Shown here piece after piece: positions 33,601-36,600 of a stretch of 64,000 nucleotides of DNA. How positions within the stretch are numbered: the first letter of the stretch is position 1; each line of letters starts with the position of its first letter. Both the position numbers and the translations under genes were made by a program. Source of the stretch: Rugalucina vietnamica (lineage: Eukaryota > Mollusca > Bivalvia > Lucinida > Lucinidae); NCBI GenBank assembly GCA_964017185.1, contig OZ024874.1, positions 31,286,721 to 31,350,720 of the forward strand, read 5' to 3'. The notes beneath the pieces are model-generated. The model did not search any database and had not been told where the DNA came from. It saw nothing but the letters and a program-made list of their open reading frames with translations.

Positions 33601-36600
33601 TGCAAGATCTAAAGCCCCGTTCTCACTGCTACGGTTTAAACCCCGGTTCATCCCGCTTTGTCCCGGTGCAGACAAGCCGGCATACCGTGATAAACCGGGG
33701 AACTTTCCCTACAAAATTAATCGTTTTCTCACAGGCACGATGTTACCCGTTTGTCTAAGATGGTGTCCCGGTGACTGCCAGTCACACCAGCGTGATGTCC
33801 ACGTGTCCCCTGGTATTGATATATATAAAAGCGACCTGTAAGAACCATTGCGATACCGGGTGAACCGGGGCGCCAGCGGACCAAACAGGGGTTCACGGAG
33901 GCCAAACCTTTAAAGCCGGTAGGTGCCGATTCATCACGGTGGAGTCCCTGAGAATCACCGGGTTGTGCCAGAATATCCCGTTGTCGTCCCAGTTCACGCA
34001 CGGTTAGACCCGTATTGTCACGGCTTTACCCGTCACGCCCCCGGTTGTATTAAACATTTTAATAGAACCGGGAAGGCACGCCGGTTTACCCTGGTTCGTC
34101 CCGGTTTGCCACGGTTGTCCACGGTAGCGCTACGGTTCTGTTCTGGTTCGTCACGGTTTAACCCGGTTTATCAATTCGGGGAGAACCGGCGAGCTAAAGC
34201 GGGACAGTGGGAAAAGGACTTAAAGGCCTGTTTACACTTTCACGATTTTTGGCTACGGTGCCGCTACGATTCGCCACGAATTGTAAAATCGTCGTGTACC
34301 GTGGTGATTCGTAATAGAACCGTGGTGTATCGTGGTGGATCTTGATGAATCGTGATGATTCGGGCAACTCCACGGTAGCGCTACGGAAGTTTTAAACTGT
34401 TAAAAACATTCGTGGCGAATGGTGGTGGTGATTGGGCGTGGTCTAATTCGTAGCGCAACCGTAGCGGAATCATGCTTATTCGTACTAACACCGTAGCTAT
34501 ATTCGCGGCTATTCGCGAGAGATCATAGCCAGTCGTGGAATCTTTGACACCACGAATGCTCACGAGTCACCACGAATTGTGTACGGTTGTCCTATGAATC
34601 ATCCACGGTTCGCTACGGAGAGCTCGTGATGCTACCGCCGTGAATCGTACTAGTACCGTATCGAACCGTACAAGCACCGTGAGCATTCGTTGTGCCTCCG
34701 TGGTCAATTCTCATTGACCGTAGCGCTGCCGTCATGAATCGTCACTGATTCGTAGCGATACCACAGACACCGGGCTATTATCGTGGACATTCTTACTGGT
34801 TTCGTAGTGACACTGAATATTTCAACTTTTCACCACGATTCATCCCGATCCATCCCGATTTTTCTAACCATGAGAAATCGGGTCGAATCGTCGAGAAAAT
34901 CGTAAATGTGTAAACGGGTCTTAAGGAAGAGAGACTTTGGTCTACAAAATTACTAGTCCCTTACAATGAAAACGAGTAGCCCGAAGGTGAACGATCGCTC
35001 ATCTGAGAGTCATCTTAAGCTTTAACCTCAAGTGTTGCTTATTCCAATTTGGTCAAAACTCACAGTAACAGATGTTGTTTACTATACTTTTATTTATTAA
35101 AATTTATACTTTATGTACTAATGAACATTTATTTCAGTCATGCTGGGACTTCATGTATATGGAACATCTTGTAAACAATTCATTCTCAAATGAAAAATAT
35201 TTTTTCCTGTTCATTTTTTTTTTTTAAAGTATTGCAAAAAAAGAAAATGTTATATAATAAAACAATTGTTGACCATTTAGTCGAAGAATATGAAGTGATA
35301 TCCATCAGAGATCATATATATATATATATATATATATATATATATATATATATATATATATATATATATATATATATATATATATATATATATATATATA
35401 TATATATATATATATATATATATATATATATTTTTTTTTTCTTCTTTTAATTCAGTTTTACGTCCCTTTCAATATTATTTCAGCTCAAATGAGACGTGCC
35501 AATCAGTAGGTGGGCGAAAACGGAAGAACCCCGAGAAAAACCACATGGCAAACCCGCAAGTAGAACTTAGCTTGTCTCACATGTGGCCAGTGCGGGGTTT
35601 CGAACCCACACCAGGCACAGCGGTCTTAACCACTCGGCCACGGGGGCCGCTATTATATATAATGCCTCAACAGTAAATAATAATTGTATAATTTTGTAAA
35701 TAATAGAAAAAAGTAGAGGTAGGCAAAGATCAGGAAAAGGCGCAATCAGAAAAAGATTCCCACTCCAAAAACCGAGGTGGGAAAAAACTAAATTAACAAA
35801 ATTCAGTTACCTAAACTTAACTAAAAATATGAAACATGTCAACAGCACAAAAATTTTAAACACCAAGACATAAACAATATGTTTTCCAACAAGTATACTG
35901 ACGACAATTTTCAGGGGTTCATACATAGTCGTAATTTTTGCAAGCTGCATAATAACACTTGACCACGGTTTATTAAATTTGTTTTAGGTTTTCATACTTC
36001 TTACCGTGAGGTCCCCATGAAGTCGTTACGTCCTGCATGACAAACTCATCCATAGGAAGATACACGTAAAATCCCGTTTGTCCGCACGCACCGCTTCCGA
36101 CAGTGTGAGGAGGAATCATATTCTGAGAGTCCCCTATTCTGATATGACTTGTGAGGGAGTTGAGACCAGCTACCGTCTTGTAATAATCCTTCTTTGTCCA
36201 TGATTTCGGTATAACCACTTTGAGTGTTTTGAAATAGGCACGTCGATGGGTAGCTTTAAACAGCATGGTCGATGCTTTCGCGAATATATCCTGTAAGGAA
36301 ACGAGCAAATAATTGAGCATTTTAAAATGAAATAACAAAAATAAAAACATGATTATATGGGTCATTATAAAAAAAAAATGGAGCAATCCAGAAAGGCAAA
36401 ATGAAAAACAAAATAATTGTCCATTTTTTTTTCTTTTTTAATGGGATAGTTTTATTAACAGGAGCATATAGAATATAGAAATAAAATACACCGAGTTTAA
36501 CTGAACAAATAGTGCACCAGCATTAATCAGTTGTATGGTACCCTTGAAAAAAAAATCACTGCTGTCACGAACAAACTTTCTTGCGTAAAACGCTCATGTG

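What the first reader, a model, noticed from the sequence alone, without database searches (positions are those of the whole stretch)
33609..34924. Family of foldback elements whose interiors are arrays of their own terminal words
Five elements (95-1262, 6388-7786, 33609-34221, 34220-34924, 53717-54934) share one architecture but not one sequence. Each has an inverted terminal segment with a CACACT- or CTCACTG-like block, no coding capacity, and an interior filled with degenerate 6-10 nt words on both strands. In each, those words resemble the inner part of its own termini (ATCGTG in E3, GATACGGA in E2, CCCGGTT in E4, CGTAGC/GATTCGTG in E5, GACGTATC in E1). TTAA or a TTAA-like sequence sits at several borders. 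Foldback elements such as Drosophila FB and sea urchin TU also have termini built of short repeats, so a relation is possible. Five diverged word sets sharing one design suggest that interiors evolve by turnover of terminal, possibly transposase-binding, words. Two elements abut exactly at TTAA.
Basis: partly seen in the sequence, partly recalled or inferred. Interest (0 to 1): 0.78.

Follow-up and report, generated by a model that had tools for sequence, protein, structure and literature searches.

The report
Foldback mini-transposons with helix-phased words
These are gene-less jumping-DNA elements, most likely moved by Harbinger-type transposases, whose arms are filled with short family-specific CG words spaced about one DNA helical turn apart, as one would expect of a landing strip for a DNA-binding protein.

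Summary
The architecture is real; the TTAA part is wrong. Each element's interior is enriched in its own terminal words (z 6.2-11.3). (1) The ends share one plan: TWA, 9 nt, then a YACACT/CTCACT-like box (leave-one-family-out ranks 7-35 of 127,954; E5 weaker without the TWA columns). (2) The words are CG-centred and phased at about 10-11 bp; words 9-11 bp apart share orientation in 149 of 171 pairs; DNA outside shows no such phase.

In the 1.09-Gb host genome E4, E2 and E5 have at least 38, 28 and 34 near-full-length further copies. Two nested insertions give empty sites with 3-bp TTA and TAA duplications. At least 150 PIF/Harbinger transposase loci exist. One 3.4-kb element, L098, has DDE and Myb/SANT genes, TAA duplications, the same box and CG words near its ends.

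Best reading: Tourist-type (PIF/Harbinger) MITEs with foldback arms built of probable protein-binding sites. Binding, and the autonomous partners of E1-E5 themselves, are not shown. New variant of a known kind.

The parts
107..1245 (.). E1: word arms (CGTATC-type words), left end TTA|TAGCTCTGTCACACATTCACG; right end uncertain
   Evidence: own-word z 11.3; LOO rank 8 of 127,954; CG distance 11: 26 seen, 8.1 expected; no exact TSD; genome copies not searched
6389..7785 (.). E2: 45-bp TIR 97.8% identical, TGCCTAGGTCACACTAG; TSD TTA at 6386-6388 and 7786-7788; inner second left end near 6712; GATC-type array in the core
   Evidence: 28 near-full-length genome copies, 76-82%
33613..34220 (.). E3: CCCGGTT-type words throughout; TSD TAA at 33610-33612 and 34221-34223
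   Evidence: no other close full-length copy, right ~185 nt in 35 of 57 match rows
34224..34921 (.). E4: CGTGG/ACGAT-type words throughout; TIR AGGCCTGTTTACAC / AGACCCGTTTACAC; TSD TAA at 34221-34223 (shared with E3) and 34922-34924
   Evidence: 38 near-full-length genome copies, 82-90%; TSDs of copies; nested copy L052
53719..54932 (.). E5: ATCGTG-type words; TIR TAGGGCTTTCACACT / TGCGGCTTTCACACT; flanks TAA and TTA (not identical in this copy)
   Evidence: 34 genome copies, 89-96%; nested E5-in-E5 with TTA duplication
26555..26842 (.). E6: weak candidate, CG-phased array (AGCGTGT words), right end AAAGGGTAGTCCCACATTAGCG; left end unclear
   Evidence: blind phase scan, sequence, terminal model score 10.0; own-word test not done

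Best explanation
They are non-autonomous cut-and-paste transposons (MITEs) most likely moved by PIF/Harbinger-type machinery. Shown: 3-bp TWA duplications, a common terminal box, many dispersed copies of E2, E4 and E5, and own-family CG words phased at about one helical turn, mostly in inverted arms. Shown in the same genome: a complete Harbinger element (L098) with the same kind of ends, CG words near them, a DDE transposase gene and a Myb/SANT gene. Inferred: the words are binding sites of the element's DNA-binding protein, probably the Myb-like ORF1; one-turn spacing puts sites on one face so that several proteins load side by side, collect transposase and bring the ends together. Inferred: arms grew from subterminal words by short duplications and template switching during gap repair, and were kept in active source copies because more sites compete better for shared protein. 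After insertion a copy decays without visible constraint.
For: Own-word test. CG-CG distances 10 (84 seen, 31.9 expected, z 9.9) and 20 (75, 31.7, z 8.1) in the five elements, none outside, phase kept beyond neighbours. Same orientation 149 of 171 at 9-11 bp, 115 of 144 at 20-22, but 23 of 68 at 15-17. Common ends. Empty sites with TTA and TAA; 14 of 30 E4 copies with both ends recognised have identical TWA on both sides, 51 of 70 recognised ends abut TWA. At least 150 DDE_Tnp_4 loci. L098: TAA/TAA, TIR with 1 mismatch in 16, DDE_Tnp_4 8.4e-36, Myb_DNA-bind_4 2.2e-22, CGs at nt 28,33,39,45,50 and 20,30,36,41,53,56 from its ends.
Against: No binding data. No transposase is tied to the exact ends of E1-E5; among 34 transposase stretches read (33 places, 20 of them with only 1.5 kb each side) only L098 has clear ends of this kind, and it belongs to another family. 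Core words exceed spacers clearly only in E3 and E5 against simulated neutral arrays. Neighbouring words share spacers a little, as slippage would give. E4 copies show no extra conservation of words after insertion; CGs decay fastest. A spectral statistic is weak for E1. TIRs of E1, E2, E5 and L098 begin with T, whereas A or G is usual (PMC4482050). In mPing/mPong internal sequences seemed not to act by sequence (PMC9921582).
Confidence: 0.68

Rival explanations
1. Neutral minisatellites in ordinary Harbinger MITEs. The arms are 10-11-bp tandem copies made by slippage and inverted by gap repair; the words bind nothing.
For: Short true tandem runs exist; nearby words share spacers slightly more than distant ones (0.341 against 0.289, expectation 0.254); core-minus-spacer differences of E1, E2 and E4 (0.08, 0.07, 0.08) lie near simulated neutral values (0.03-0.05, SD 0.02-0.05). 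Medicago Harbinger elements carry tandem repeats attributed to gap repair (PMC2213677).
Against: Five unrelated word sets share one period of about 10-11 bp with phase kept to about 43 bp; core-over-spacer contrast in E3 and E5 (0.13, 0.19); CG words also near the ends of the autonomous L098.
Confidence: 0.22
2. The phased CG/AT pattern works on chromatin, not on the transposase: it sets nucleosome position or GC level and so brings the ends together or keeps them open.
For: About 10-bp dinucleotide phasing is a known nucleosome signal (recalled); the mPing authors propose a nucleosome effect of internal GC (PMC9921582 passages).
Against: Words are family-specific beyond CG and match each family's own ends; CGs also sit at 5 bp (52 seen, 32.0 expected), where a nucleosome pattern would put AT (recalled).
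Confidence: 0.06
3. TTAA-type (piggyBac or Kolobok) elements, as the reader's TTAA suggests.
For: TTAA fits the two ends of the window copy of E4 if one register is shifted by 1 nt.
Against: Gapless registers give 3-bp TTA or TAA in E2, E3, E4; copies with TTA and copies with TAA occur in one family; empty sites show 3 bp.
Confidence: 0.01
4. CACTA (En/Spm) elements: 3-bp duplication and repeated subterminal motifs in both orientations bound by a TNPA-like protein.
For: CACACT-like box, 3-bp duplication, repeated motifs (compare PMC2613891 passages).
Against: The box lies 9 nt inside the TWA border and does not start the element; the complete element of this design codes DDE_Tnp_4 and Myb/SANT.
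Confidence: 0.03

Closest known systems
Tourist-type MITEs of PIF/Harbinger (mPing/Ping; Harbinger3N_DR)
   Same: 3-bp TWA duplication, short TIR, no coding capacity, two-protein machinery with a Myb-like ORF1 (PMC2836001, PMC9179366 passages; PMC4482050 section 5)
   Different: Those papers' passages describe no interior built of helically phased copies of the terminal words
MtPH-A6-4 Harbinger elements of Medicago
   Different: One 60-bp repeat with a triplicated 12-nt motif in one subfamily; no own-terminal-word code or 10-bp grid reported in what I read
Galileo (P superfamily, foldback-like)
   Same: Long repetitive TIRs with several transposase (THAP) binding sites shown by footprint and gel shift (PMC3688188 passages)
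   Different: Another superfamily; binding sites are few and far apart
Tetris and other foldback elements
   Same: Arms of subrepeats with a variable middle; part of the subrepeat resembles the outer end (PMC4079207 passages)
   Different: 220-bp subrepeats and 8-10-bp duplications
En/Spm and Tgm (CACTA)
   Same: Many short motifs in both orientations near the ends, diverging between families, bound by a separate DNA-binding protein (PMC2613891 passages)
   Different: CACTA TIRs, tnp2 transposase, 12-20-bp motifs restricted to subterminal regions
CMITE of corals
   Same: MITEs with conserved interiors and tandem copies (PMC2872659, abstract and first of four parts)
   Different: piggyBac/TTAA, interior is one conserved sequence

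Membership tests
PIF/Harbinger (non-autonomous) | 3-bp TWA target duplication | tested here: met
   E2 TTA, E3 TAA, E4 TAA in the window, none exact for E1 and E5; 14 of 30 E4 copies; empty sites for E5 (TTA) and E4 (TAA)
PIF/Harbinger (non-autonomous) | first TIR nucleotide usually A or G (PMC4482050) | tested here: inconclusive
   A in E3 and E4, T in E1, E2 and E5 and in L098, which codes the Harbinger genes
PIF/Harbinger (non-autonomous) | TIR sequence like known PIF TIRs | tested here: inconclusive
   best 10-nt match to Medicago TIRs: E4 9 and 7, E3 7 and 6, E5 6 and 6, E2 5, E1 4; 4.5% of random TWA sites reach 7
PIF/Harbinger (non-autonomous) | autonomous relative with DDE_Tnp_4 transposase and Myb/SANT ORF1 and the same ends | tested here: inconclusive
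   L098 has both genes and the same terminal plan but another family's end sequence; exact partners not found among 34 stretches
piggyBac / Kolobok | 4-bp TTAA duplication | tested here: not met
CACTA (En/Spm) | element begins with CACTA/CACTG at the duplication | tested here: not met
   box is 9 nt inside the border
Foldback (FB, TU, Galileo, Tetris) | long inverted arms of short subrepeats, variable middle | tested here: met
   inverted self-alignments in E1, E2, E4, E5 but not E3; folding z -4.9 to -13.6
Foldback (FB, TU, Galileo, Tetris) | duplication of 8-10 bp (Tetris, PMC4079207; other members recalled) | tested here: not met
   3 bp

The most novel reading that the evidence does not exclude
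Each family is a written-out recognition code: the element is a helically phased track on which its Myb-like protein lines up along one face of the DNA, inverted words being offset by half a turn. Families diverge by protein and word changing together while the box, the 3-bp target and the 10-11-bp grid stay fixed, so one genome records the evolution of DNA-binding specificity.
Probability: 0.33. Interest if true: 0.75.

Novelty: new variant of a known kind. Interest (0 to 1): 0.55.

Why it matters
If the words are binding sites, these MITE interiors are not filler but multi-site, face-aligned landing tracks, which would help explain how MITEs outcompete their parents for shared protein. Several word sets in one genome with at least 150 transposase loci would make it possible to match DNA words to Myb/SANT proteins. 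The arrays also mislead annotation, since they look like degenerate satellites and hold stop-free stretches of 133-140 codons.

Tried and rejected
Rejected: TTAA superfamilies and CACTA (membership table). Not supported: conservation of words after insertion (E4 copies). Weak: core-over-spacer contrast against simulated neutral arrays, clear only in E3 and E5. A CG-pair spectrum gave best periods of 5.0-5.3 for E1-E5 and was weak for E1 (z 1.5) and 10.2-10.7 in a second run (z 1.3-4.8 for E1-E5); I rely on distance counts instead. Terminal patterns of E4, E2 and E5 in viral contigs: 0 matches each. Pfam on 10 window stretches found CLCA and LINE domains and no transposase; 139 frames had been translated and the rest were not scanned. 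A generic search for TWA-flanked TIR pairs was run on the 14 longer transposase stretches only (L090-L103) and gave one convincing pair, L098; two others were low-complexity. L100 has one E3-like end near a transposase but no partner end, so no claim. Prior-art searches; none of the listed titles and abstracts showed own-word arrays on a helical grid in Harbinger MITEs; Repbase and most subscription papers are not in that library. Sinzelle 2008 (PMC2290759) is not held. My notes give 'at least 33' E2 and 'at least 38' E5 copies; recounting the tables gives 28 and 34.

Full report
WHAT WAS CHECKED. The finding names five elements in a 64-kb window of an animal-like genome (a CLCA exon and a LINE with endonuclease and reverse transcriptase; species unknown). 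I tested the word claim, borders, anatomy and identity in the window, then in the host genome when its search answered: G000, 1,089,854,562 bases, 47 contigs, window at C6:31286721-31350720.

THE WORD CLAIM HOLDS. All k-mers of nt 18-60 of both ends were counted in every interior against 200 dinucleotide shuffles. At k=6 the own-interior z is 11.3 (E1), 9.5 (E2), 7.2 (E3), 9.7 (E4), 6.2 (E5). Cross values include E4 to E5 6.8, E5 to E4 5.2, E3 to E4 6.5, E3 to E1 3.5, E1 to E2 3.2, E2 to E1 2.8, and E5 to E1 -3.3; the others are 2.0 or less in size. Four kb of background gives -2.0 to 1.7. Words are family-specific, with E4 and E5 related.

A HIDDEN GRID. The words are centred on CG. CpG observed/expected is 1.13-1.74 inside and 0.82 outside. 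CG-CG distances summed over five elements peak at 10 (84 seen, 31.9 expected, z 9.9), 20 (75, 31.7, z 8.1), 11 (58, 31.7, z 4.8), 31 (53, z 4.2), 42 (52, z 4.0) and 5 (52, z 4.0). Outside there is no such peak (distance 10: 49; 20: 61; mean 57.7). When gaps between neighbouring CGs are permuted, distances 20-22, 30-32 and 41-43 remain in excess (159 against 117.5, 146 against 101.8, 120 against 95.6; 0 of 1000 permutations reach them), while 15-16 is not in excess. Word orientation was assigned from 3 nt on either side of CG: pairs 9-11 apart have the same orientation in 149 of 171 cases, 20-22 apart in 115 of 144, 30-32 apart in 97 of 129, 15-17 apart in only 23 of 68 (candidate E6 included; pairs with unclear orientation left out). 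This fits words of one orientation on one face of the helix and inverted words shifted by half a turn. A blind scan for the grid flagged stretches in all five elements and one new stretch, 26251-27001. A spectral statistic is weak for E1.

COMMON ENDS. Anchored by hand, nine termini (all but E1 right) read TWA, 9 nt, then a box (CACACW, TACACW, CTCACT, CCCACT). TTA plus TAA make up 4.6% of window 3-mers. In leave-one-family-out scans of 127,954 positions, with 7 or 8 training ends each, held-out ends rank 8 (E1), 8 and 8 (E2), 9 and 10 (E3), 7 and 9 (E4), 35 and 19 (E5). Without the TWA columns the ranks are 8; 9, 9; 10, 18; 7, 11; 163, 62. So E5 is the weakest match.

BORDERS: 3-BP TWA. In gapless register E2 gives exact TTA, E3 TAA, E4 TAA; E1 and E5 give none. 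With a 1-nt shift E3 also allows TAAA and E4 TTAA. E3 and E4 share one TAA: TAA-E3-TAA-E4-TAA. Of 40 genome copies of E4 plus the window copy, 30 have both ends within 5 mismatches; 14 of these 30 have identical TWA on both sides, in TAA and TTA versions, and 51 of 70 recognised ends abut TWA (28 TTA, 23 TAA). An E5 inside an E5 shows GATTAG-TTA-CGAG turned into TTA|TAGGGCTTTCACAC...GTGTGAAAGCCGCA|TTA. An E4 inside an E4 shows TAA on both sides at a CTAATAT site; a second such case (L051) has the left junction but not the right.

COPIES (lower bounds; only the best candidates are scored). E4: 45 further match rows, 38 near full length (query about 588-623 to at least 1296), 82-90% identical; 1,486 first-look candidates. 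E2: 28 near-full-length copies (query start at most 75, end at least 1364), 76-82%. E5: 34 copies spanning query 9-1178 or more, 89-96%. E3: no other close full-length copy; one 66% relative over 39-614; 35 of 57 rows cover only its right ~185 nt at 77-86%, so E3 is low-copy or mosaic. E1: not completed.

ANATOMY. Inverted arms align at 63-84% in E1, E2, E4 and E5, not in E3; in the E4 family consensus nt 1-163 pair with 539-700 at 64%. Folding z values are -4.9 to -13.6, interiors alone -3.8 to -9.3. E3 and E4 are words throughout; E1, E2 and E5 have other cores. E2 has a second inner left end near 6712 that pairs with its right arm, and the same pairing recurs in its copies.

WHO MOVES THEM. 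The genome has 150 scored matches to PF13359 (DDE_Tnp_4) of 415 candidates, all over the cut-off, many in open frames. I read 34 stretches with such genes (33 places; 20 with 1.5 kb each side, 14 of about 6 kb). Only L098 (C2:60292339-60298300) shows clear ends of this kind on both sides: TAA at 515-517 and 3888-3890, TIR TACCCTGTTTAGACTA / TACCCTGTTTACACTA, 3,370 bp; terminal-model scores 21.3 and 9.4. It codes a DDE_Tnp_4 protein (8.4e-36) and a Myb_DNA-bind_4 protein (2.2e-22). CGs lie at nt 28, 33, 39, 45, 50 from one end and 20, 30, 36, 41, 53, 56 from the other; the terminal 60 nt hold 8-10 per 100 against 3.7 overall. The autonomous element thus has such words near its ends; the MITEs have them in arms or throughout. 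It is not the partner of E1-E5.

MECHANISM. Harbinger elements make 3-bp TWA duplications and need a Myb-like protein that binds the ends and brings in the transposase (PMC2836001 and PMC9179366 passages, PMC4482050 section 5). The simplest reading is that the words are that protein's sites, multiplied in MITEs. Galileo shows the principle in another superfamily (PMC3688188 passages). Growth by gap repair was proposed for repeats in Medicago Harbinger elements (PMC2213677 Discussion). Binding, synapsis and competition are inference here.

AGAINST. A neutral 10-bp minisatellite history is not excluded: simulated neutral arrays give core-minus-spacer differences of 0.03-0.05 (SD 0.02-0.05); the elements give 0.08, 0.07, 0.13, 0.08 and 0.19, so only E3 and E5 stand out. 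Near words share spacers slightly. CG sites in E4 copies agree with the consensus in 0.908, other positions in 0.94-0.98: no sign of constraint after insertion. mPing and mPong interiors seemed not to act by sequence (PMC9921582 passages).

VERDICT. Real foldback-armed, Tourist-type MITEs with family-specific CG words on a helical grid, a design I did not find described in the ten literature searches made.

Noticed in passing
41378-49437: A LINE (frames 42393-44525, 44489-47650, 47571-48041) lies between two 1,100-bp direct repeats 99% identical (41378-42475 and 48338-49437); the sequence runs straight from the LINE tail into the second repeat, so it may be a head-to-tail partial second copy.
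   Followed up: partly
30430-31301: Tandem repeat with a period of about 147 bp, 79-87% between units.
   Followed up: no
6954-7220: Core of E2 is a degenerate TGATCGATCGAT-type array, unlike its terminal words.
   Followed up: no
L052, L087, window 33610-34924: Copies insert into TWA sites inside or at the end of earlier copies: E4 in E4, E5 in E5, E4 beside E3; two E2 copies also abut at C3:45490506.
   Followed up: partly
L009-L048 (E4 family): CG sites are the fastest-changing positions of E4 copies (0.908 agreement), as methylation decay would give.
   Followed up: no
L100, end near 5257 on the minus strand: An end with the E3 box and an E3-like word (CCCGGTCC) lies about 2.3 kb from a DDE_Tnp_4 frame; no partner end found.
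   Followed up: partly
C11:813561-817984 of G000: A cluster of several broken or nested E5-like copies in both orientations.
   Followed up: no
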